Source: Atrichornis clamosus (taxonomy: Eukaryota > Chordata > Aves > Passeriformes > Menuridae). From it: a stretch of DNA of 64,000 bases. The notes under the pieces are model-generated. The model saw only the letters and a list, made by a program, of their open reading frames with translations. It was not told the origin of the DNA and ran no database searches. Of the stretch, positions 1,717-61,593 are shown piece by piece. Location of the stretch: positions 1 to 64,000 of the forward strand of contig WBMZ01011760.1 of the NCBI GenBank assembly GCA_013400975.1, read 5' to 3'. Both the position numbers and the translations under genes were made by a program. Each line of letters begins with the position of its first letter. Position 1 is the stretch's first letter.

Positions 1717-42614
<40,898 letters not shown>

Positions 42615-48277: not shown

Positions 48278-48283
48278 TTTATT
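48278..48283 (-). terminator. Poly(A) signal of the minus-strand receptor-like gene
   Basis: TTTATT on the plus strand is AATAAA on the minus strand, 122 bp after the TAG at 48405. This implies a short 3' UTR and agrees with the last exon assigned at 48405-48556. Confidence 0.6.
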
Positions 48284-48404: not shown

Positions 48405-48556
48405 CTACCAGCCAGCATAGACGGGCTCTGTGTGCTCCGTGCCCCCGTACGTGGTGTGTGCCCCTGAGCCGCGGGGCAGCAGCAGGGACCTCAGGGATTT
48501 CTTGCCATGGTCTCGCCGCCTTCTCAGAATTATTAGAAAGACAACAAGGATGCCAC
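48405..48556 (-). CDS. Receptor-like gene exon 9: end of membrane helix and cytoplasmic tail
   Basis: The acceptor on the minus strand is TTTTTTTCCAG before 48556. Phase 1 joins to give GGILVVFLIILRRRRDHGKK, then SLRSLLLPRGSGAHTTYGG and TEHTEPVYAGW followed by TAG. The hydrophobic run and four arginines are a textbook stop-transfer. The tail has two tyrosines (TTYGG, PVYAGW) that could be phosphorylated. Confidence 0.8.
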
Positions 48557-51500
48557 CTGGAAAAAAAGGAACAGTAGTTACTCACAGATCAGAAGGTAAA
48601 GTGTCAGGTGATGTTTGCACTAGGGCTTCCCAGCTCAGGTATTTTCATCTGGTAAAATAAGGGATTTTTTCTCTTACATACTCTGGCCCCCTCAAAAGAA
48701 CTAAAAAAAAGGATTTCACTAGCAATAGTAATCAACACTCAACTTCAGCATTTCAGCTTTGGAAGCTGTAAGGAATAACAGAATAACAGCAAGTTTTAAT
48801 GAAATAATTCAGTAGCTTTCCTACTCCCGTGTACTCTCTGCTCCGTGGAACTACTATTTTCCACTTTGCATCTTACCCACTGCAGATCCCACCAAAGGAT
48901 CTTGTTGAGAAATTAGTTTGCTGTGTGCTCACACTGAAGCACAAGAAGTAACTAACCTAGATTAACTTTGAGTCTAGACTGAGATCAGGGCTGTCAGGAA
49001 AAATTACTTTTAGATTGGGCATAGACATGGAAGTAATTGGCAAATCTCAAGTACTGCGACATTCTGTTCATTTGTTTTTGGCAGAAGCATCGTCAGGGAA
49101 AATTGATCTGAACAGAAGAGCACAAATCTGTCGCTGTGATGCAATATGGCCAGACAAATACATCCAAATTTGGGTTGTGTGAGCAGACAGTCTCATGGTA
49201 AACACTTGATCTGTGAGACCAGCCGTGAAATGCTCGCGGGTTCCTGCGTGGGCTGTTTCCTTTCCCCTCTTTGCAGCAAGCTCTGGGAGAGGCAGAGCTG
49301 TGCCCAGGAATGCAGTTCCCTGACCCTCCGACTTGTTTATCACAAATGCTGGTTAATGGGACATTGTCCCTCTCCAGGACAGGCTTTTCATACACTTCAT
49401 TTTAATCTACTTTTTCAAATTAATACTTGCTTCAGAGGGCATCTGTTTTGGCAGATTTTTGGACAACAGCCTGACATGAGGGGATAGGGGTCAGTGGAGG
49501 AGCTTTCTCATGGCTTTGAGCTACAGCTTGTGAGAACAACCCTCATCTGCTCCCACCAGGCATTCCAGCCCTTTGGAGACAGCAGTCAGACGGTGCTGCT
49601 AGAGCTCCTCCAGACCCTGCTGTCCTTGTCTCCTCCCATGCACCCATGGAGTCTTCTCCTTAGCTGCCAAGAGAGGAGTCTGATGGGAACACTGCTTTCT
49701 TGGTGGAGAAGCAGCTTTGCTGTGTGTCCTGCTCACTGGGGGAAATAAAACATCTATTTCATCTCTTCCCACCTTTTAACAACAGGGAGCCGAGTGGAGA
49801 ACAGGTCTTCAGGAGATACTGAAAATACACTTGAAACACAGAAACCATGGATATGAGGCCTATTGGATATTCCTTATCCTCTGATGGCTTAGTCATCTCT
49901 ATGACTAAGCTCTCTTGACACAAGATTTTCATCTCTAGTAGTGTAAGTGGCACTTAGGGATCTCTCTCATCTGCCTGGGCAGGGGAGACAAATCCCTCTT
50001 CCCAGCTTTCTCATCTGCCCTTTTTGCAATCCACAGCAGTAAGAGTTGCTCATTTTCATCATAACTCTCTGATTAAACCTCCCCCCGACTTTGATTAAAA
50101 ACAACAGAACTCTTTTTCCCTTTCCTAAGACTGAAAATGCATATTCACTTTTTCTTGGTGCAGCTTCCCAGTAGAAAAGCTGATCCAGGGATTGACTTGC
50201 CCTAGTGAGCTGATTTACAGCAGGTGGCATCTGGGCTGAGGGGTGCTCCCCACACCAGCAGGTCCTGGCTGCCCTGTTGTTTACAAGGTGTGTTATGGCA
50301 TCAATACAGCCAACACTGCACAAGCCAGCAGCTCCCCATCCTGCTGGGTGCTGTGGCAAGACTTAAGACAGGAATGCTTTCAGGGAAAGAAGTCTCCTAC
50401 CAAAAGAAAATTGTCCTTTTTCCTACTTCTGTGCAGCCAAGGAAGGTCCATACAAACCCCTGCTTCCCAGGGACAAACAACAAGCGTTCAGCACTGTGCC
50501 AGCCTTCCTTCAGAGCAAGGCACGGGATTATCACCGGCACTGAAAGCAGCCAGAAAGGCCTTCTTTAGAAGTCCAGCCTCCCAGAAACATAAAATACACC
50601 ACCCAGAGAATACTTGGTTTAACACCCAGCTGCAGAGCGGTGTCTGGTTTTACCAGAGGGCAGAGAGGACCCGCACTGACCTGCAGAGAAGGTGGCCAGG
50701 ACAATGACCGTGGCAGGGGTCAGCCGGCAGGAGTCCCCTGCCTTGTACAGGAAGAGCTCCATGCAGTAGCTCGGCTCGGCGCTGCCCCGGGGGCAGAAGG
50801 CGTCGGGAGGGCACCGCACCGGGCTCACATCTGGGCTCTGCCCAAGAGAAGAAGCAACTCAGCACCAACAGACTGCAGAGCGCAACCAGTGCAGAGGGAG
50901 GTGACACTTCAGCACTGGGCAAACAAACAAACAAACAACAAAAAGAAAAATAACCAAGAAAAAACCCCTGCCATCATTAAATTCAGCCTGTCTGCCCCTG
51001 CAATGTTACCCAGAGTCGAGGCAAGAACAGAAGCTGTCATTACACAGCAAATCCATACATCAAAACCCCTCATTAATGGACACACCACCTCCTGATGGCT
51101 CGGTGGCAGGAGGTAGCTCCAGGCACAAAGCCACACTCCTGGTGTCATAATTTTAACCACCTCCCTGCCTCAGAGCCCTCTCTATGTTTAAGGAAAGAAG
51201 CTCAGATTTAAAGAAAAAAAAAGTGTTAACTGAAGAGTATTTAGCTTGTCATGGGACAGCTCTGTGTTACCACAGGCTGTCCCATGAGCTGATGGGGACT
51301 CACAGGGCAGTAGTGGCTTTCTGGGCACAGGTCACAGCTCTCCTTGCCCTGCTGTAATTGGTACTCTCCTGTCCTGCAGGCCCTGCATCTGTTGTCACTG
51401 GGACCTCTGAATGTACCTAAAGAGCAGATAAGCACAAAATTAAGATCTGGGACTAGACCCCAGGACCTTTGCAATTGCATATGGATGATTCAGCTGTCAA

Positions 51501-54500
51501 AGCTACAGGGAGAAAGAGCATTAGATGCTCATTTGCATAACAAAAGCTGAGCCTGACTTTGGTCCTGGTTCGGTGGCAAAGGGGCAGAACAGAGCAAACA
51601 GGGACAGAGGGACTAAAGGATATTTGGGGTCAGACCTTGGCAAACAGAGTGGTGTGAGTAGGAGTTGGTGGGAGAGCGGTTTAGTTGTGAGCTCTGGCTT
51701 TGAAGTAAAGGGAAGATTGGAGCTGGAGGTCAGCAGCGTTTCATCCCCTCCAATTCTAGATTCAAACACACTTTCCAGCTGTTTGAAACGTGCTGAGCAG
51801 AGTTCAAAGCACAGCTCAGTTTCCCAAGCTGTGTGGGAATGACAGGTCACAGAAGTTCCAAGTCTCAAAGTGGTAAATGCTTTCCTGCATGTTTAAAATG
51901 CAACTTGGCTACAAGAAACCCCTGGTGCTGTGTCCAGACAGGAGGCTGGTCATGGCCATCTGGGGCGGCTGGAGTGCTCTGCCCCGCCACTGGCTCACCT
52001 GCTGCAGCCTGCTGTAGTTTCAGACAGCACTGGAAGGAGCAGGGCCATGTCCCTCACATCCCCCCTCCCGGTGTCCCCTCTGCCCCCGGCTGCCCCTGCA
52101 GAGCATCCCCATCTCTGCGAGCAAGGCTGTGCTTTCATCAGCAAAGCCACCACCTCTGATGAAGATGCTTTTTGGCTGGAATTGTTACCCAGCCATGGAT
52201 TTGGGCACCCTGCCATGCCACTGACCAGCACAACTCTGAGCCACTGACCAGCCTGGCAGGAAGGTCTGGCACAGGCACAGCCTCCACCAGCAAGTCCAAC
52301 CACCCCGGCACCACCCCTGACTGCCAGGGCACAGCTCGGCCCTGCAGGTGCCACCCGGGGCTGGCAGGGACCCCGGGCCTCCGTGTCAGGTGAGCGGAGT
52401 CTGGAATGAGCAGCTGGAGCTGGAGCCGTGCATTCCCAGCCGGGCTGGCACAGCCTCCCCTCCCGGCTGCAGTTACCTGGCGGGCAGGACACGCACCCCT
52501 CCGACGCCTCCCGAGGAGCCTCTTGTCCCCCGGGGCACGGCAGACAGGATGTGCAGCTGCTGGTGCTGGGAGGGGACAGGAGGCAGCACACGCTGTAGGA
52601 CAAGCACTGCCAGGCCCAGCCCAGCCCACCAAAGCCAGCTCCATGTCTGTACAGACTGGGGTCTCCAGGGTCTACCAGGAACTTTTGCCATTTTGTGGGC
52701 GTTCATGGTGTCTGCGCCCAGTGCTGTTTCTCACAGAGAATCACAGAATGGTCTGGGCTGGAAGGACCTTAAAGATCCTGTTTTTCCAACTCCCCTGCCG
52801 TGGGCAGGGACACCTTCCACTAGACCAGGTTGCTCAGCCTGACCTTGAACACGTTAATTCGGGCTGGGTACGCAGTGGTCAGCACCAATGTCCCTACAGC
52901 TGAAATGGCCAGTCACTCGCCTCTGGCCACTGCGCTGGTGGTTCCAGCTCAGTGGCTAACAGAACCACCCCCCCTTTCCCTGTCCACCTGAGAGCAGCAT
53001 CCCAGGAAGATCCTTACTTGCAAAATGATCCCGGCTGGCAAGGCAAACAAAAAGCTGCATTTTGCTTGGAGCTAAAATAGCCTGGAAAAGAGAAGAGTAA
53101 GGCGTCAGGATCTTGCCTCCACATCTCTGCCCCACATTGTCGTGTATTTGCTCAAGTCCATTTTACAAGTAACCAAATCACTCCCCACAACACACGTCAG
53201 GTGGCATTTCATGGGCTAATTCAGGATATTTGGTTTCCTACTTGTCAAAGGCTCTGAAAGAGCAATAAAAGTTCCCTGCTGTCTCCTGCCATGTTGAGGG
53301 ATGCATGGAGGGCTCAGGCAGATTCCCCTGGTGTCACTCCCACATCCAAAACCACACTAAGGAGACAGAGAGACCTGTTACCCTTCCCAGCACCACAGGC
53401 TGAATTGGAATGAAGCTGGAATAGCTGATCCCAGTACCAATTCCTGGGTTATTCAGCTGAAGCAGGTCTCTGACCAGGGGAAGCCCCTCTGGTCATCCCA
53501 GCCCTTCCAGGCCTTCCCCTACCCCAGGAAGTCTGGGGTGCACCTTCTTCCCCACAAAAGGAAGGACACAAGACCCGCCAGCCAGGATGGCCCTGCTGGT
53601 GCAGCAAACCCTCCCTCCCTGCACCACGAGGGCCAGGACAGGCAGGAGGACACATGCAGGCCCTTCCCAAAGCACCACAAGGAGTGAAGTGCCCCCGAGT
53701 GCCCATGGTGTGGGCAGGGGCCAGCAGGACCCAACTTGTGAGTCCCATCATGCCAATGGGAAAGCCAGGAGAACAGCACCTGGGAATTCAGGTGGGTTTG
53801 GAAGGTGCCTGACGATGCACAGCATGGTCACTGCCCACATGGGACAGAATTAAGGTTCAGAGAGGAGCTGGAAGCGGTGTGGGTAAGATCTGCCTCAAAC
53901 CCGGATTTGCACCAAGCAGCAGAGGCTGCAGCAGAGGAGAGTGAAACCAAACCCCTCTCCCTGCAGGGAAAAAAAAGAACTTTTTCCATTTATAATTGCA
54001 GGATTTAGAGGCCACCCCCACAATTCCCCAGTTGTCTGACAGAGTGTTCAAATCCGCTGAGTAAGGGGAGTGACAGACCCCATCACTGTCACCAGGCAGA
54101 CTTTGTTCCTCCCCAACTCAGTGACTCAAGTGACAGCCAGGGCTTAGGTACAGCCCAACAGCCCCGTGGGCAGGTTTTCAGAAGAACAGTTGTGCACGTT
54201 CAAACAGGGCCCCATTTGGGTGCAGAAGAGCTGCTGCATTGCATGTGTTAATTAGGGGTTTGCATAAGTAAATACTGTTCCTTTCTGCACATGCTGTTAC
54301 CCCGTCTGCAAACCCACTGCACCAGGCTTGTGTGGCATCAGCCAGGTGCAAAGCAGCTCTCTGAAACCCCAGTTTTAACATGCAGAAAATAAGTAGAGTA
54401 TTACACTTAAAATTCAGACTGCAGAAGATTGCCTAAATGAAAACAAAGATGGTTTAGGCTCATTTTTGTCATTAAAAATGGGGGAAGGATTTATTTTCCT

Positions 54501-57500
54501 GACACGCCCCTCCCCCTTGTGCTACAACTGAATTTCATAACCCTTTTTCCCCGACTTTCATTGCAGTGTTAGCATTAGCTTATTGCAGACAAAAGCATGG
54601 CTGAGATCTTTTTTCATTTTAATAATAACAGAATAGGGAAGAGATCTGCTGTGCTATTTTTATCCTGTTTACCCTTTGGTGCTTTTAAGTTACCTGGTAA
54701 TTGCATCTGGCCCTGGGAAGCTTCATGTGATGAAAATGCATTTGGGCTGAACACAGACCAAAGCCTACCTCGCTCACAGGCTCTGCAGGCTGCAGCCCCA
54801 GACTCATTAGAGAAATGTCCAGGCAGACAGGGAAGGCACACAGTGCTCCTTGGGAAGCTGGGAGGGAAGGGAGCAGAGGGAAACACTATTTTAGGTCATC
54901 CAAGCCTCTATCCACTTGAAGAGGAGAGAGCAGAGTACAACAGTGACAAGTCTAGAAATAAAACAATTATAAAGGAGTTCAGGCAGAAAAACATCAATTT
55001 GAACTCACCTGAATGTTAAAGGTCCACTGAAAAAATTAAGTTTCCTGTATAATTAACATTAGAGATGCCCTGTGCCTTTGGGCTACATGGAAAGGGACCA
55101 CCTGAATTGAAGGTCTTGGAAAATATGTTGTGGTCAGGCTTAAAACCCTGGGCTTAAAGTCAGACTCTTAAATCCACACTTGACAGTTGAATTGGGAAGG
55201 TGTTTGCTGTTGAGCATCCGTCAGCGATTTCCAAAGGAGCTGCTCCATTGTTGGGAATTGGGAGTCGGAAAAAGGAGCTAAAACACAGGCAGTGACATGA
55301 GAGCCCTGACCTTAAATAACAGGGACTGTGGGAAAAGGGATGCAATATGTTAGACCTCCAGGAGGAGGGGGAGGAAATGAGGGAAAGGCAGGGAAAGAGG
55401 AAGCTTTTACATTCATCACTAACAGAGCCAAATCCCCCACAACAACCATGTGGGTATAAGAATTTGATAACATACTTGGGGATGCTTTGGAGGAAAACAA
55501 GGATATGTTCTTTAATCCTTCAGAAATCCCAGGGCTGAGATTTGCAGAAAAAAAAAAAAAGAAACAAAATCCAGTTGGAAACACAGCAAATGCTTCGCTG
55601 AAAACAAACCAAGGCAGGGCCTGTGCCCGCCAGAGCCGCTCAAAGCTGCGGGGAGGCTGAATTCTCCAAATCCCACAAAAATGCTAAATGGTGCCTTCGA
55701 AGCCCCGAGGCCCAGGCAGCCACCGTGGAGATGGCCACGCACACCCTGCACCCCCAGATCCCCTCCACATCTGCCCGGTTCTGGTCCCTGCTCTGGCACA
55801 CACCAACCCAGCACTGCTGGCCCTCTCTGGTCCCTGGCTCCTGGCCTCCTCCACATCCCAAGAGCAGCAGCTGTGAGGTGCTCTGGGCACTGCTCCTGAC
55901 GGGTATTTTATAGTAATTTGGGGGTAAATCTTTCAGGCAGGTCCTCACAGCACAAACTGCAAGAGGGGAGTATGGAGGAAGATGCTGCCAGCACCTCAAA
56001 CTCAGGGGCTGCTGCACACAAACTGCACAGCCAAGTCACCCTTCCCTGCAGCCAGATTTTGTTCCCTCTCTCCAGGACTGATCCAAATGGAGCTGCTCTG
56101 CAATGGACACAGTCCTGGGAAGCTCTTGCCATCCCTCCTGTCCTTGCAGCCGCACAAAGGGCACTGTTTGCAGACATGGATATAGCAAGGGAAAATCTGA
56201 TGGAAAATGGCAAGAGCAGCACATCCACAGGTCCCCGCAGCCAGAGAACACTTGTACATCATCCCTGGATGAGGCAGCCTGTGAAATTGCAAGACAGGGC
56301 TCCTGGCTGGGATTTCTTGTCAGCTTTTCCACCCTCTACCAGCTGAAGGCATCACTTTAGATGCCAGCAACTTAAATGTAATGAGATCCCTTGTGGGCAA
56401 GAAAACAGGGATTGAGACAGTAATTGGGCAAAGGACAGAGATGAAGCCCATTGGTCAGACATATCCTAGAGAAAAGCTGAGGAGGTGAACCCAAACCTCA
56501 CTCCCAAGTGTCCCCCCATCACAAAACAACACATTCCCTCTGAGTACATGCAAAAGACCACGGGGGTAAAGAAGGGAAGCCCACAGAGGAGCAGCCCTCA
56601 GCACAAGAATATCCACACCAAGGTTTCCTGATGAGGAGAATTTAGCCTATGAGAAACAACAACTTTTCCTACAGCCCAAAGGAAGAGACTTTGCTGGCTG
56701 GGAAGTGTTTTGTGGAATAGCATCCAGCACCCATGCCCAGGGGCTCAGTGACTCACCTGGTGTAATACCCCTGCGGGCAGGGCAGGCAGGATGGTTGCCC
56801 ACTTTGGGGCTGGTAGTGGCCTGGTGGGCAGGAGCTGCAGGCACTGGGGTCTATGCACGAGCCCCCTGCACAGCACGAGCAGCTCAAGGTGCCTAAATCG
56901 GAACAAAAAGTCAGGATCAGGACTGTGAGACTCGTCTGAAACCCCTGTGCTCACCAAGGCAGAAGCTCTGGGAAGCAGTTCCTCTGGCAAGGCACTTGTA
57001 GAGGGTAGAAACTGCAGTATTGATGCTAATTATGCCACTGTCCATCATTAGCAAGCTGAAGAAAAGTCATAAGATGATCTAAGGAGTCAAGCCCATCAAT
57101 GTGGATTTCCAGTAGTTAAGGTGACTGCTTTTTCCTTTAATTTGAGGAGTCAGGAAGTTTTTTGTTGTTTTCCTTCCAATACACAAACAAAAAAGAAAAA
57201 AACCCAAACCAACCAATATATTCCTTTGGATTACTGATAATTTAAGCCTGTAGGAAGCAGAACTGATGAGTAAAACCCTGGAGTAGAGGATCTGCCTTAA
57301 GCAGCAACAGCTTTTCTTTGAGCACAGGTACCATGGCATTCCCACCAGGCAAGCTCTATCCCTCTCTACTCCACAAAACCAATCAGAGCCACGCAGGGAA
57401 ATCGGGTGGGATGTGCTGCAGCTGCACACATTGGATCTGCCATCCCACTGCTTGCTTGGGTGCTGCACCACAGAGCACAGGCTAGAGGAGAAGACCCTGT

Positions 57501-60500
57501 CGATGAACATCCTGCACACAAGGGAGGTGGGGAGTAACTCCTGTCCTCTGTAGATTCACCCTAAAGCATCAGAGCTGCTTATTCCCCTTTTTAAAAGTGA
57601 CCTGCAGTGTGGGGAATAAGCAAAAAGTGCATGGCTTGTATCTTAGAGAATTTTTTTTTTTGTGGTGTCGGGTTGTGATGTTAGAAATCAAAACCCAACC
57701 ACGTTACAACATAACTAACTTCTGGAAAACGTAATATTATGCACTCCTGACCACAACAGAGGTTGATCAAGTATAGCCTCACGCTCAAGGGAAAACGTCG
57801 TCTCTAGAGCAGAGATTCTCTTTTAAACATTCAAGACAGCTGAAGTTGGCCTTCTATTTGGCCCTACACCTCAAAATGATGCCCTTCTGCCAATCAATCA
57901 AACTGTACTTGTGTAACCCTCTGTGCCACAATCCCACTGCTTTGTCATCCCACTGGGGAAGCCTCAGGAAGACCAACACACAGCACAAGGCCAGGAAGGC
58001 CAAGTCCTTAACTTCAGAAAGGTGAAATGAAGGAACTCCCTTTCCTGCTGCCTGCCCAAGCTTCCAGCACAGGAACATGGGGTGGCTTCACGGCTCAGGA
58101 CAAGTCACTTTTCCCTCTAACACCAGGCAGCCAGGGCTGGCAGGGACTCACCTTGGCTGGGGACTGTTCCTGGGGGGCAGCGGGCACAGGCTGTCACGTT
58201 CACCCCGCTGCAGCTGGAGGGCTGGGGGGTGGTGGGGAGCGGAGCTGTCGATGGGACCCCAGGAGACGTGGTCACTCCTGGAGGGGACACTGGGGCACTG
58301 CCGGATGTGGTCATCGGTCCTGCAGACGCTTGAGAGGCGGCCGTGCTGCCAGAGGTGGGGACAGTCCCCGTGGTGGTGGGCACAGTCTGGGTAGGGGTTT
58401 TTGCACTTGGATCAGCAGACGGAGCTGCTGTGGATGCAGCAAGGTTTGCAGTGGTTGGTGCTGATCCAGCTGAGAGTGTTGCAGCAGCAGCAGCTGTGGG
58501 AGCAGAGGCCACAGCAGTGCTTGCACTGGGAGGTGCTGGGCTTGGTGCAACAGGGACCTCGGTGCTGGTGGCACTGGGAGGGGCTGGGGTTGATGCACTG
58601 ATGCTGGCTGTACTGGGAGGTGCTGGGGTTGATCCATCAGGGACCTCAGTGATGGTGGCACTGGGAGGTGCTGGGGTTGGTGCAATGGGGACCTCAGTGA
58701 TGGTTGTCTGGCCTAAAGCAATACCTAAGAGAAGAAAAAATGTAATTAGTGGCCAAATATTGTTCTATCTTTAATGGTGGCTTCCCATTTAGGTCTTTAT
58801 GAACAACTTAAACTCTTTGTTTGATGCCCAGAAACTCCTGCCTGCCGTAACCCACTAGAGAGCAAGGTTCTGAGGCAGCAACTGAGCATACCCAGCACAT
58901 GAGAGACTTCTCAAGGAAATAAATCAGTGGATCCATGCGGCCACAACAAAGTGGATGCCAATGTCCAGGAGATCCAACTCTCCCGGATAAAAGGGTGTGA
59001 GGATTGCCCAAAACACTCAGTTTTCTTAGCTCCTTGACACAGTTTACCCTGAGATCTCATGACAATCTGATTTCAGGTGCATGTCTTGCTGTTTTATCCT
59101 ATCTCCCTTAAACAAATCAGCAAAGAAAAGTCATGGGCTTGGGATTTTTTTATGCTGTCCTGGAAATACACCCAGTAACCAGAAGGGAGCCTGCAGGCCA
59201 AGACTTGTTTTAATTCTGAAATCCCCCATCAGAGTGAGGAGAGCTGTAAACTGCAGAGAAAGGAGGTATTACTGCAGCTCAAGTTGTTTTGCTGTGGTAC
59301 ACGGCGGACTGGAACATCACCTGCTGATGGAAGCCCTCCTTCGGGGGATGCCTTCCAGTTTCTGAACAGAGGAGAGACCCATGAAGCTAAACATGAAAAG
59401 CAGCAGGCTGTTTTTAATTTAGCAGTGGAAGAAAAGCAAAACCGAAACAGGCAGCTCCTGCCACAGCAGCTGTCCCATGAGCTGGGTTCAGGAAGTCAAG
59501 GCAGGGACTTACTCAATGCTTGCTGCAAGTTGTGGGAACACCCAACCTAATATAGCACCAGTATGAGACTGGGGCTGATCCTATGGGATGTAAATGCTCT
59601 CCCATCCAGCACACATTGCTAAGCCCCTGGCAATCCAGGCCCAGTGGCACAGAAAACAAAAGGACTCTCTTAGGAAATTGGTTTATGTGTTTCAAGGAGC
59701 TGACACCTGAAGGTGGGATGTAGGAGAGGAAGGACACGGGCAGGGTGACAAGAGAGGTGACAAGTGCCGGCTGGCTGCAGACCCACAACCTTGCAGGCTT
59801 TTCTCCAGCCCTGTTTCACCCCCAGCCATTGATTTCTCTCAATTTTGTCCACACCACGCAAGGCCAGGCACTGTGGGCCCCACTGCTCAGCACCACCACG
59901 AACATCAACATGCAGACCAAGCTGATGGCAGCTCCAGTTATTCTGCAGCAGGATCAGGACACTGGATAAAAGAGTCCTTACAAAGTTGTGATCACATGGA
60001 GACAGTTTGCTGGGAGTGCTCCCTCCTGTTCTAGACTGCTTGCTTTGTGCTTCATGAAGTGTCAAAACCCATCTTTGTGCAACTCTTGAGTAAAGCAGAG
60101 GAGCACCCAGCCATCTGGGCCACTGCCCACATTTTACAGAATTTAGAGAATATTCTGATTTGGAAGGGACCCAGAAGGATCATGGAGTCCCTCTCTTAAG
60201 TGGGCTGTAAGCCCATGTGGGGATCAAACCTTCAACCTCGGCATTAATAGCACCGTGCTCTGAACAACTGAGCTAAATCTCATTTTCTTGCTGTAGCCCT
60301 AAAACAGAGACACTGATTCTAATTTTGTGGCACGTTGGTTTGCCCCAGGCTCAAATCCAAGGGATGGAGGTGCCAGCATTGGTCCCAGGCAGGGAGAGCA
60401 GCTCCACAGTACCCGCAGAGGACACTGCTACTGTGGCCATGCTGCCATCCAGGACCAAGATGCACAGTTCCCCTCATCTGACGCTGCTGCCCTAAGGGCT

Positions 60501-61593
60501 GAGGGCAGTCTGCTGCTCTTTCCTCACCTCTGACAGCAAACTGAGCCAGTCCTGAGATCAATTAAACTAATCTTAAAGTAAATACTAGCAGTAAATCATG
60601 GGCACTGTCAAGTTCTCCTGGGAAAATCTCTCAGAAGCACCTCTGAGATCGAAGTCTGATCCCCCACAGAGCAGAGATTTAAACACCTTGGAGTGTCCAT
60701 AGTTGGATGAATTTTGTTGTTGGGTTTTTTTAGTTGAATCTGTTTCATTGGTTAGTTTTGGTGTTAAATGGTGATACTGTTGAAATGAATTTTTTTTAAT
60801 GGAAAATACTTTTTCATGTTACTAAAATAGTAGAGTTGCTTGCAAAACTTCAGTAAACATCAATAGCCTTTGGTAGCCAGTACTTCTTAATAATTTAAAC
60901 AATTTCTGGAGGAAAAAAGAAGTCAGTAGGCTCAAAAAAAGTAGTTTTGAGCATCTAGTAAAGTGTGCATATTTTACCAGTTATAGTCAGTCACAGGTGT
61001 GCAAGACCAGTACTCAACCTCAGCTTCATCAGACAAACCACTTTCTCTCCTGCACTTACACTGTCGATGCCAGAGAGCAGTGATTTTGCTTTCTAGAGCC
61101 TTTTTTTATTCTTTAGGAGCACTGTGAATCACTCAGAGTATTTCCAGGGACACCCGAAGGATGTGTCATTTTGTGTGTGATGCCTTGCTATGAACAACAG
61201 CTTTGAGGATCTCAGGGAATGTTACAGAGCTGATCCTTCCCAAACCACAGGCAGCGTTCTATTCCTTGGGGTTTAAGATAAATCCATGAAGAGACCACTG
61301 CAAATCCTCAATATGCAGAGTAGTACAGCTCTATTTCTCCTTCTTTGCTTTTTTCTTGTATTCATCCCGCTTCCACCACTGCCTGTCTTTCCACACATCT
61401 CCTTCCCTGCCTTCCCCCCAGCCCTGCCACCTGCTGCATCCCGACTCCACGAAGCCCAGGGCTCCCACAATCCCATTTCGGCTTTACCCACCTCCGTGCT
61501 GAGCCAGCAAAGAGAAGCCCTGCACTGGCAGCACTTACCTGTCAAACACGCCATGGTTAAGCTCCACAGCAGAGGAGAGGGCCAGGCACTCAT
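48405..61593 (-). CDS. Unrecognised type I membrane protein: mucin-like stalk plus Cys-rich ephrin-receptor-like repeats (9 exons)
   Basis: Joining 61593-61539, 58724-58152, 56892-56757, 54857-54769, 53081-53018, 52565-52477, 51416-51304, 50837-50681 and 48556-48405 on the minus strand gives 1428 nt, 475 residues plus TAG. Every junction has AG/GT signals and matching phase. Predicted layout: signal peptide (about 1-23), Ser/Thr/Pro/Ala-rich stalk (about 24-190), repeated C-x-x-C-P-x-G-x-(Y/F) units as in TNFR, GCC2/GCC3 and ephrin-receptor-like domains (about 195-390), a membrane helix split over the last two exons, RRRRDHGKK stop-transfer and a ~40-residue tail ending PVYAGW. A glycosylated cell-surface protein is inferred. 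I cannot name an orthologue. A missed small exon or a different start is possible. Confidence 0.75.
48557..50680 (-). other. Intron 8 of the minus-strand gene (2.1 kb)
   Basis: No recognisable element or exon-like frame with splice signals found on either strand. Confidence 0.5.
50681..50837 (-). CDS. Receptor-like gene exon 8: juxtamembrane Cys cluster and start of membrane helix
   Basis: The acceptor is TCTTGGGCAG and the donor is GTCAGT. It encodes SPDVSPVRCPPDAFCPRGSA, EPSYCMELFLYKAGDSCRLT and PATVIVLATFSA. Five cysteines are followed by the first half of the transmembrane segment, which continues directly into exon 9. It runs from phase 0 to phase 1. Confidence 0.78.
50921..50939. repeat. 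Short (AAAC)n microsatellite
   Basis: About four to five AAAC units in intron 7 of the minus-strand gene. Confidence 0.8.
51304..51416 (-). CDS. Receptor-like gene exon 7: Cys-rich repeat
   Basis: The acceptor is CTGCTCTTTAG and the donor is GTGAGT. Joined to exon 6 it gives CPPGTFRGPSDNRCRACRTG, then EYQLQQGKESCDLCPESHYC. This is the classic C-P-x-G-T-(Y/F)...C-x-x-C pattern of TNFR/ephrin-receptor-like repeats, and the junction reconstructs the CPPGTF motif exactly. It runs from phase 1 to phase 0. Confidence 0.82.
51417..52476 (-). other. Intron 6 of the minus-strand gene
   Basis: GC-rich intron. Long overlapping frames on both strands near 51833-52450 have the skewed composition of GC-rich noncoding DNA, with no splice context of their own. 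Confidence 0.5.
52477..52565 (-). CDS. Receptor-like gene exon 6: Cys-rich repeat
   Basis: I chose the acceptor TCCTGTCCCCTCCCAG because it has the best pyrimidine tract; two nearby AGs in the same phase are alternatives. The donor is GTAACT. It encodes TSSCTSCLPCPGGQEAPREA, then SEGCVSCPPG, with the C-x-x-C-P-x-G repeat signature. It runs from phase 2 to phase 1. Confidence 0.75.
52737..52860 (-). mobile_element. CR1 LINE 3'-end fragment in intron 5
   Basis: The plus strand reads AGAATCACAGAATGGTCTGG, then GCTGGAAGGACCTTAAAGAT, GGGCAGGGACACCTTCCACT and AGACCAGGTTGCTCAG. This is the reverse complement of the CR1 3' end, so it lies in the same orientation as the host gene. It is truncated and closer to consensus than the copy at 15.6 kb. 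Confidence 0.92.
53018..53081 (-). CDS. Receptor-like gene exon 5: short Cys-rich exon
   Basis: The acceptor is CTTCTCTTTTCCAG and the donor is GTAAGG. The exon is only 64 nt. Joined to exon 4 it gives CERGGYFSSKQNAAFCLPCQ, then PGSFC, and continues at the exon 6 junction as an Asn codon (GSFCN-TSSC). This short exon is found only by following phase, and it restores the repeat spacing. It runs from phase 1 to phase 2. Confidence 0.75.
53082..54768 (-). other. Intron 4 of the minus-strand gene (1.7 kb)
   Basis: No mobile element recognised. Frames near 53449-53850 on both strands look like GC-rich noise without Cys-repeat character. Confidence 0.5.
54769..54857 (-). CDS. Receptor-like gene exon 4: Cys-rich repeat
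   Basis: The donor is GTAGGC. Two acceptors 9 nt apart, CCCTCCCAG (exon start 54857) and CTTCCCAAG (start 54848), keep the same phase. The first gives GYYTSFPRSTVCLPCLPG across the junction with normal repeat spacing, and the second removes three residues. The exon continues HFSNESGAAACRACERG. It runs from phase 2 to phase 1. Confidence 0.75.
54858..56756 (-). other. Intron 3 of the minus-strand gene (1.9 kb)
   Basis: Contains an A run near 55548. Overlapping frames at 55600-56350 on both strands have no splice support and I do not call them. No mobile element recognised. Confidence 0.5.
56757..56892 (-). CDS. Receptor-like gene exon 3: first Cys-rich repeats
   Basis: The acceptor is CGATTTAG and the donor is GTGAGT. 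It encodes GTLSCSCCAGGSCIDPSACS, SCPPGHYQPQSGQPSCLPCP and QGYYT. The CPPGHY and CPQGYY units are typical of ephrin-receptor-like/GCC2-GCC3 repeats. It runs from phase 1 to phase 2. Confidence 0.82.
56893..58151 (-). other. Intron 2 of the minus-strand gene (1.3 kb)
   Basis: Contains a T run near 57650. No exon or mobile element recognised. Confidence 0.5.
58152..58724 (-). CDS. Receptor-like gene exon 2: signal-peptide end, mucin-like stalk and first CPPG motif
   Basis: The acceptor is CTTCTCTTAG and the donor is GTGAGT. After GIALG (probable signal-peptidase site before QTT) comes a ~165-residue Ser/Thr/Pro/Ala-rich stalk with repeats such as TPAPPSATITEVP. It then runs through PLPTTPQPSSCSGVNVTACA and RCPPGTVPSQ. 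The stalk should carry dense O-glycans, and NVT is a candidate N-glycosylation site. A His/Gln/Leu-rich frame and a plus-strand Val/Ala/Gly-rich frame over the same DNA are shadows of the repeat. It runs from phase 1 to phase 1. Confidence 0.82.
58525..58712 (-). repeat. Coding tandem repeat, 48-bp unit with one 39-bp copy
   Basis: The plus-strand anchor ACTGGGAGG starts at 58525, 58573, 58612 and 58660, giving spacings of 48, 39 and 48 bp. Each 48-bp unit encodes 16 residues around PAPPSAT-TEVP and the short copy 13, so the frame is kept whatever the copy number. Confidence 0.85.
58725..61538 (-). other. Intron 1 of the minus-strand gene (2.8 kb)
   Basis: Holds the SINE at about 60134-60284. 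The rest shows no coding or structural element that I can support. Confidence 0.55.
60134..60284 (-). mobile_element. tRNA-Ile-derived SINE with CR1-like tail (TguSINE type)
   Basis: Read on the minus strand, the 5' part has an A-box-like TTAGCTCAGTTGTTCAGAGC (from 60276), an anticodon-arm-like GGTGCTATTAATGCC and a B-box GGTTTGATCCCC (60230-60219). This pattern closely follows tRNA-Ile(AAT). Then comes GACTCCATGATCCTTCTGGG and TCCCTTCCAAATCAGAATAT, a CR1-type 3' tail. Fusion of a tRNA-Ile head to a CR1 tail is the design of songbird TguSINE elements, which are moved by CR1 enzymes. Ends are approximate. It cannot be a functional tRNA gene because the acceptor arm is absent. Confidence 0.8.
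61539..61593 (-). CDS. Receptor-like gene exon 1: start codon and signal peptide
   Basis: The first in-frame ATG is at 61593-61591 with A at position -3 (GGAAAAATGAG). It encodes MSAWPSPLLWSLTMACLT and ends in phase 1 at a GTAAGT donor. With exon 2 it gives a hydrophobic leader ending in GIALG. The frame is open further upstream but without another ATG. Confidence 0.72.

What the first reader, a model, noticed from the sequence alone, without database searches (positions are those of the whole stretch)
48405..61593. Hidden nine-exon gene for a mucin-stalked, Cys-repeat membrane protein opposite NSD2
Every exon is short, so no long ORF betrays it. Following AG/GT signals and phase on the minus strand yields one uninterrupted 475-residue reading with signal peptide, S/T/P/A stalk, about six CPxG(Y/F) Cys repeats, a membrane helix and an R-rich stop-transfer. 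Eight junctions all keep frame and several rebuild motifs across the splice (CPPG|TF, CERG|GYF). The combination of a mucin stalk and ephrin-receptor-like repeats on one type I protein is unusual, and I know no named mammalian gene with it directly 3' of NSD2.
Basis: partly seen in the sequence, partly recalled or inferred. Interest (0 to 1): 0.85.

Follow-up and report, generated by a model that had tools for sequence, protein, structure and literature searches.

The report
Unnamed vertebrate receptor beside NSD2
The nine-exon gene is real: it encodes a cell-surface protein kept from sharks to birds, not found in mammals here, whose last seven amino acids hardly vary and resemble a known tyrosine-phosphorylation docking signal.

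Summary
Observation confirmed. Nine minus-strand exons (61593-48405, eight of eight introns GT-AG) splice into one 475-residue frame. Other birds have the same protein (77-84% over residues 185-475 in the six best rows, 70% in guineafowl), so the splicing is not chance. It is the bird copy of an uncharacterised jawed-vertebrate gene (fish name si:dkey-21a6.5), seen in sharks/rays, ray-finned fish, coelacanth, lungfish, amphibians, turtles and birds; the tree groups follow the species. Among rows with a visible organism, no mammal, squamate or crocodilian orthologue was listed. Databases name it SCUB2, SVEP1, MEGF9, laminin, FLO11.

The protein is type I: signal peptide, S/T/P/A stalk (long in birds and turtle), a rod of ephrin-receptor-like Cys modules with 31 of 32 cysteines invariant in 24 chosen sequences, one membrane helix, and a short tail. 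EPVYA is an EPIYA-type sequence, like the phosphotyrosine/SH2-docking sites of Pragmin and p140Cap.

Best mechanism (inferred): extracellular binding is coupled to phosphorylation of this tyrosine and SH2-adaptor recruitment. Rivals: sorting or C-terminus recognition. No bench data.

The parts
61539..61593 (-). Exon 1: start codon and most of the signal peptide (MSAWPSPLLWSLTMACLTG)
   Evidence: 78-84% identical in 4 of 5 other birds of alignment A1 (31% in the fifth, P0008)
58152..58724 (-). Exon 2: end of signal peptide, Ser/Thr/Pro/Ala mucin-like stalk, first cysteines of the ectodomain
   Evidence: 78% STPA, 37% S+T over 165 residues
58523..58704 (-). Tandem array inside exon 2 (period 48 nt, 4.0 copies, 73% matches) building the stalk repeat
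56757..56892 (-). Exon 3: Cys-rich module (CSCCAGGSC...CPPGHY...CLPCPQG)
54769..54857 (-). Exon 4 (89 nt): Cys-rich module
53018..53081 (-). Exon 5 (64 nt): Cys-rich module GYFSSKQNAAFCLPCQPGSFC
52477..52565 (-). Exon 6 (89 nt): Cys-rich module; exons 5+6 (153 nt, entered and left in phase 1) are a frame-neutral cassette, absent from turtle model P0017
51304..51416 (-). Exon 7: Cys-rich module TFRGPSDNRC...CPESHYCP
50681..50837 (-). Exon 8: last Cys module (SPDVSPVRCPPDAFCPRGS...YCMELF...C) and first half of the membrane helix
48405..48556 (-). Exon 9: rest of membrane helix, RRRR stop-transfer, cytoplasmic tail, stop codon
48408..48428 (-). Codons of the C-terminal EPVYAGW: EPIYA-type sequence ending at the stop codon
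48447..48449 (-). Codon of the second conserved tail tyrosine Y462 (YG), 10 residues before Y472
   Evidence: Y in 94 of 96 rows at this column
48278..48283 (-). AATAAA polyadenylation signal

Best explanation
The locus is the bird orthologue of an uncharacterised jawed-vertebrate gene (fish name si:dkey-21a6.5) for a small type I receptor. Shown from sequence and model: a signal-peptide-like N-terminus; in this bird, a 165-residue S/T/P/A stalk; a rod of ephrin-receptor-like disulphide modules next to the membrane; one membrane helix; and a tail of about 39 residues ending in EPVYAGW-COOH. Inferred: the stalk is O-glycosylated and extends or shields the N-terminal side; the rod binds a ligand or another membrane protein; binding or clustering exposes the C-terminal EPVYA tyrosine to an Abl- or Src-family kinase; phosphotyrosine 472, perhaps together with Y462 ten residues upstream, then recruits an SH2 protein such as Csk, as EPIYA-type sites do in Pragmin and p140Cap, so that the receptor tunes Src-family signalling at the membrane. 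The gene's identity is near certain (about 0.97); the confidence given is for the tail mechanism.
For: Reading frame and exons. Orthologues from sharks to birds; ray-finned fish, birds, amphibians and cartilaginous fish each form one branch in a 34-row tree. 31 of 32 ectodomain cysteines are invariant in 24 sequences that I chose for being near full length. AlphaFold model of the woodpecker orthologue P0013: most ten-residue blocks above 90 pLDDT over residues 31-220, a helix at 246-280, tail 280-301 below 50. Tail: of 102 held proteins with the YCMExF signature, 94 end in YAGW, one more in YTGW, and 93 carry [ED]P[VILM]YA in their last 60 residues. In the 96 rows ending YxGW, per-column entropy is 0-0.8 bit at residues 469-475, against 2.0-3.5 bits at 440-447, 453-461 and 464-466. 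Position -1 is V/I/M/L in 96 of 96, and position -3 is E in 91 and D in 4 of 96; this is the aliphatic -1, acidic -3 pattern that the p140Cap paper gives for Abl sites (PMC3561454, passages). EPVYA is called EPIYA-related in PMC3593179 (passages), and EPLYA/EGLYA of p140Cap mediate phosphorylation-dependent Csk binding.
Against: Nothing here shows phosphorylation or any partner. The 96 rows were picked for ending in YxGW, so the last residues are conserved by choice in that count; the figure not so picked is 94 of 102. Position +3 is an invariant Trp at the C-terminus, not the Val of EPxYAxV, the form said to be under-represented in mammals, so affinity for any given SH2 domain is uncertain. 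In the p140Cap work only Abl, of three kinases tried, clearly phosphorylated the EPLYA peptide, so a Src kinase is less sure. EPIYA sites need not sit at a C-terminus, so the invariant GW-COOH suggests a further or different reader. The motif is five residues long, and I ran no count of it in unrelated proteins.
Confidence: 0.4

Rival explanations
1. The tail is a trafficking signal. The conserved LL (residues 451-452) and the C-terminal tyrosine motif send the protein through endosomes, making it a small sorting or clearance receptor comparable to ELAPOR1/inceptor.
Against: LL has no acidic residue at -4 in the window, and the tyrosine has W, not L/I/M/F/V, at +3, so neither fits the textbook [DE]xxxL[LI] or YxxPhi signals (recalled definitions). 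Conservation of E-P before Y is not needed for YxxPhi.
Confidence: 0.25
2. The invariant C-terminus is read as a free carboxyl end, for example by a PDZ-like module, to anchor the receptor at junctions or in a polarised membrane domain; the ectodomain then works mainly in adhesion or as a glycocalyx component.
For: YAGW-COOH ends the protein in 94 of 102 signature-bearing members, and the mucin-like stalk is long in birds.
Against: A C-terminal Trp is not a usual PDZ ligand (recalled). The constraint extends back to E469, beyond a four-residue end signal.
Confidence: 0.2
3. It is a TNF-receptor-like decoy or co-receptor that binds a TNF-family ligand through its Cys modules; the short tail lacks a recognised domain, so it only sequesters ligand.
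Against: The Pfam TNFR_c6 score is 10.9 against a cut-off of 29.4. Ephrin_rec_like fits far better. Over longer stretches 4-1BB superposes poorly (rmsd 8-10 A).
Confidence: 0.1
4. The exon chain is a chance assembly or a decayed pseudogene.
For: Short exons (55-157 nt apart from the stalk exon) and no transcript data available here.
Against: Exon-by-exon identity to other birds' models and conserved cysteines back to sharks, eight of eight splice sites canonical, no frame break.
Confidence: 0.02

Closest known systems
si:dkey-21a6.5 family (uncharacterised vertebrate gene; database names also SCUB1/2, SVEP1, MEGF9, laminin-like, TNFRSF9-like, FLO11-like)
   Same: Ectodomain, cysteine register, YCMExF pre-membrane motif, helix and EPVYAGW tail; tree groups follow the species
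   Different: The long mucin-like stalk is found in bird and turtle models; fish and amphibian stalks are short
ELAPOR1 / inceptor (KIAA1324)
   Different: ELAPOR1 chains in the PDB are about 1000 residues; this ectodomain is about 390 including the stalk. PF23091 was not reported for the window protein at E up to 1, though precomputed tables list it for some relatives
Chlamydomonas mastigoneme protein Mst1
EPIYA-type phosphotyrosine docking sites of Pragmin and p140Cap (mammalian) and of bacterial EPIYA effectors
   Same: E-P-(V/I/L/M)-Y-A core in a cytoplasmic segment modelled with low confidence
   Different: Here it is on a single-pass surface protein, at the extreme C-terminus, followed by an invariant G-W-COOH; phosphorylation untested
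Eph receptors / TNFRSF9 (4-1BB)
   Same: Similar Cys-rich modules
   Different: No kinase or ephrin-binding domain was reported; TNFR_c6 is below its cut-off

Membership tests
si:dkey-21a6.5 orthologue group | Cysteine register of the ectodomain | tested here: met
   31 of 32 ectodomain cysteines invariant in 24 chosen sequences, shark to bird; the 32nd (C330) in 90% or more
si:dkey-21a6.5 orthologue group | YCMExF motif, one membrane helix and tail ending EPVYAGW | tested here: met
si:dkey-21a6.5 orthologue group | Gene tree follows species tree | tested here: met
   34 rows; window with Onychorhynchus and Grallaria 100/99, birds with turtle 100/100, ray-finned 100/99 and cartilaginous fish 100/100 each one branch, amphibians 94/83; the deep forks with coelacanth and lungfish are weak, and there was no outgroup
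si:dkey-21a6.5 orthologue group | Same genomic neighbours (NSD2, NELFA) outside birds | not testable with these tools
   No non-bird vertebrate DNA was at hand. Three bird models join NELFA to this gene (P0036, P0045, P0052). A salmon candidate-gene list has it between MRPL35 and CHMP3 (PMC6786245, one passage); list order may not be map order
Ephrin_rec_like (PF07699) repeat proteins | Score above Pfam's curated cut-off | tested here: met
   61.3 bits against 23.1, four stretches
TNF receptor superfamily | TNFR_c6 repeat above cut-off | tested here: not met
   10.9 bits against 29.4
Eph receptor tyrosine kinases | Ephrin-binding domain and kinase domain | tested here: not met
   Neither reported in the Pfam scan at E up to 1
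SCUBE / SVEP1 / MEGF / laminin (names given by databases) | CUB, EGF, sushi or laminin domains | tested here: not met
   None reported in the Pfam scan at E up to 1
ELAPOR1/2 | TNFR_ELAPOR1 domain (PF23091) above cut-off | tested here: inconclusive
   Not reported for the window protein at E up to 1; below cut-off in P0017, P0020 and P0025; yet precomputed tables list PF23091 for some relatives, e.g. P0013 and P0025
Membrane mucin | Ser/Thr/Pro-rich repeat stalk | tested here: met
   78% STPA and 37% S+T over 165 residues, 48-nt tandem array
Membrane mucin | Dense O-glycosylation | not testable with these tools
   needs protein chemistry
EPIYA-type docking proteins | EPIYA-like sequence in a disordered cytoplasmic segment | tested here: met
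   EPVYA at 469-473; in the P0013 model residues 280-301 are below 50 pLDDT and the last block, which holds most of the motif, averages 51; low confidence is taken as disorder
EPIYA-type docking proteins | Tyrosine phosphorylation and SH2 binding | not testable with these tools
   needs bench work

The most novel reading that the evidence does not exclude
A jawed-vertebrate surface receptor carries a built-in, C-terminal EPIYA-type docking site that links a disulphide-rod ectodomain to Csk/Src-family control. It was retained from sharks to birds and dropped on the mammalian line, so the search of mammalian proteomes that found Pragmin (PMC3593179) would not have shown it.
Probability: 0.25. 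Interest if true: 0.75.

Novelty: new member of a known kind. Interest (0 to 1): 0.5.

Why it matters
A receptor under strong constraint from sharks to birds has no proper name, no described function in the papers searched, and a dozen or so contradictory database names. Its nearly invariant seven-residue C-terminus is a directly testable handle: one phosphopeptide pull-down would say which pathway it feeds. Its apparent absence from mammals would explain why it has been missed, and it would be a receptor-borne counterpart of the EPIYA sites that pathogens imitate.

Tried and rejected
Rejected: chance exon chain or pseudogene; membership of TNFR, Eph, SCUBE, SVEP1, MEGF or laminin families; a bird-specific gene; NELFA exons inside the window (tblastn with the two fused models P0045 and P0052 found only weak matches for the NELFA part, the best, E 7e-5 and 23% identity, to the low-complexity stalk).

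Led nowhere: the own-genome search did not complete, so paralogues in this genome and the position of NELFA were not checked. Papers: the gene name occurs in one paper of the library searched, as an item in a list; LOC106629338 in none; NELFA/NSD2/synteny/birds, at least three of four terms, none; EPIYA with cytoplasmic tail and vertebrate, none. A reading upstream of exon 2 used by model P0001 has no start codon in the window's ORF listing and was set aside as a model artefact.

Limits: one search listed 120 of 190 hits, so 70 weaker hits were not seen; one search scored only the 7992 candidates sharing most words; some rows carry no organism or a cut-off name. Absence of mammals, squamates and crocodilians means not listed among rows with a visible organism. 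The only mammalian rows seen were MEGF11 (Peromyscus), MEGF6 (Mustela) and NOTCH4-like (Fukomys) at 28-30% identity; all three lack the YCMExF signature. The 102 were taken from 162 held proteins by that signature; 60 without it were not counted, among them true-looking relatives P0065 (caecilian, other C-terminus) and P0085 (ends YAGW). The eight YCMExF members not ending in YAGW are P0005 (YTGW) and P0015, P0035, P0078, P0144, P0145, P0146 and P0149, whose C-termini differ; P0144 still reads EPVYA before diverging. Bird models P0010, P0012, P0013 and P0016 are among those whose stalk length was not measured.
Full report
OBSERVATION. Reading the minus strand and placing the splice sites at exact AG/GT positions gives nine exons from 61593 to 48405, 1428 nt, one open frame of 475 codons and a stop, eight of eight introns GT-AG. 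Two earlier placements with boundaries one base off gave a wrong frame. Exon phases and lengths show a cassette structure: exons 4 and 6 are both 89 nt with the same phases (entered in 2, left in 1), and exons 5+6 (153 nt, phase 1 to 1) can be skipped without loss of frame. The turtle model P0017 lacks just that piece (sequence). That points to growth of the rod by duplication of a two-exon unit (inference). A polyadenylation signal lies about 120 nt after the stop.

IT IS A REAL GENE. A search with residues 185-475 returned bird proteins covering 99-100% of the query at 77-84% identity in the six best rows, 70% in guineafowl. tblastn of five such proteins (of 120 loaded) against the window lands on the exons called here. 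Exon-wise identity to Grallaria is 80-90% except in the stalk exon (56%).

WHAT FAMILY. The same gene appears in turtle, frogs, caecilians, lungfish, coelacanth, ray-finned fishes and sharks/rays, where some sources use the zebrafish-style clone name si:dkey-21a6.5. Other database names (SCUB2, SVEP1, MEGF9, laminin subunits, TNFRSF9-like, FLO11-like, PCSK6-like) are not supported by domains: for the window protein Pfam reports Ephrin_rec_like above its cut-off, NCD3G and TNFR_c6 below theirs, and no CUB, EGF, laminin, kinase or protease domain. A 34-row maximum-likelihood tree recovers birds, amphibians, ray-finned fishes and cartilaginous fishes each as one branch and places the window with Onychorhynchus and Grallaria, two passerines, as expected of one gene inherited vertically; there was no outgroup, and the forks joining coelacanth, lungfish and tetrapods are weak. 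Among rows with a visible organism, no mammalian, squamate or crocodilian orthologue was listed in three searches; this is absence from capped listings, not proof of loss.

NEIGHBOURHOOD. The + strand carries NSD2: the SET-region exon's best PDB matches are NSD2, with PWWP, AWS and C5HCH domains in three ORFs tested. Three passerine gene models join the N-terminal domain of NELFA to this gene's exons (P0036 and P0045 by the scan, P0052 by the precomputed table). Two of these, read in full (P0045, P0052), use exons 1, 3 and 5 in another frame. So NELFA most likely lies upstream on the same strand in those birds; here that would be beyond this window. The fusions look like prediction errors, though read-through transcription is not excluded. 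In a published Atlantic salmon list the gene stands between MRPL35 and CHMP3 (PMC6786245, one passage); if list order is map order, the NSD2 neighbourhood is not ancestral.

THE TAIL. The cytoplasmic tail varies freely except at the (P/L)LL of residues 450-452, YG at 462-463 and the end EPVYAGW. Of 102 held proteins with the YCMExF signature (of 162 held), 94 end in YAGW and 93 carry [ED]P[VILM]YA in the last 60 residues. Among 96 rows ending YxGW, including the window, the -1 position is V 89, I 3, M 2, L 2, and -3 is E 91, D 4, A 1. Such substitutions keep the EPIYA pattern. In the literature, EPVYA is called EPIYA-related (PMC3593179, passages), mammalian Pragmin uses EPIYA to bind Csk (same paper), and p140Cap uses EPLYA/EGLYA, phosphorylated by Abl, to bind Csk; of three kinases tried only Abl clearly phosphorylated the EPLYA peptide (PMC3561454, passages). 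I therefore think it most likely that the receptor signals by C-terminal tyrosine phosphorylation and SH2 recruitment. The step from conserved sequence to phosphorylation, partner and pathway is inference. The invariant GW-COOH is not explained by this and leaves room for a trafficking or end-binding role.

NOVELTY. The gene is predicted already; its function, a proper name and the tail motif were not found described (in one open-access library). I file it as a new member of a known but uncharacterised family, with a new functional reading of its tail.

Noticed in passing
window 38904-39034 (+): Rfam SCARNA23 match (60.1 bits, gathering 60) inside the NSD2 gene span; borderline score.
   Followed up: no
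window 61600 (-), just upstream of the start codon: An acceptor-like TTCTCAG lies 6-7 nt before the ATG; the fused NELFA models read on there (..GKNECLALSS), so a non-coding first exon or NELFA read-through transcript may exist.
   Followed up: partly
window 58764-58725 (-): The frame stays open upstream of exon 2 with a hydrophobic run (IWPLITFFLLLGIALGQ); one public model (P0001) extends into it. No start codon there in this window.
   Followed up: partly
homologues P0018, P0036, P0045, P0052: Public gene models join this gene to NELFA, or in lungfish to an unrelated-looking N-terminal part, and databases use a dozen or so contradictory names: an annotation-quality problem for this family.
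   Followed up: partly
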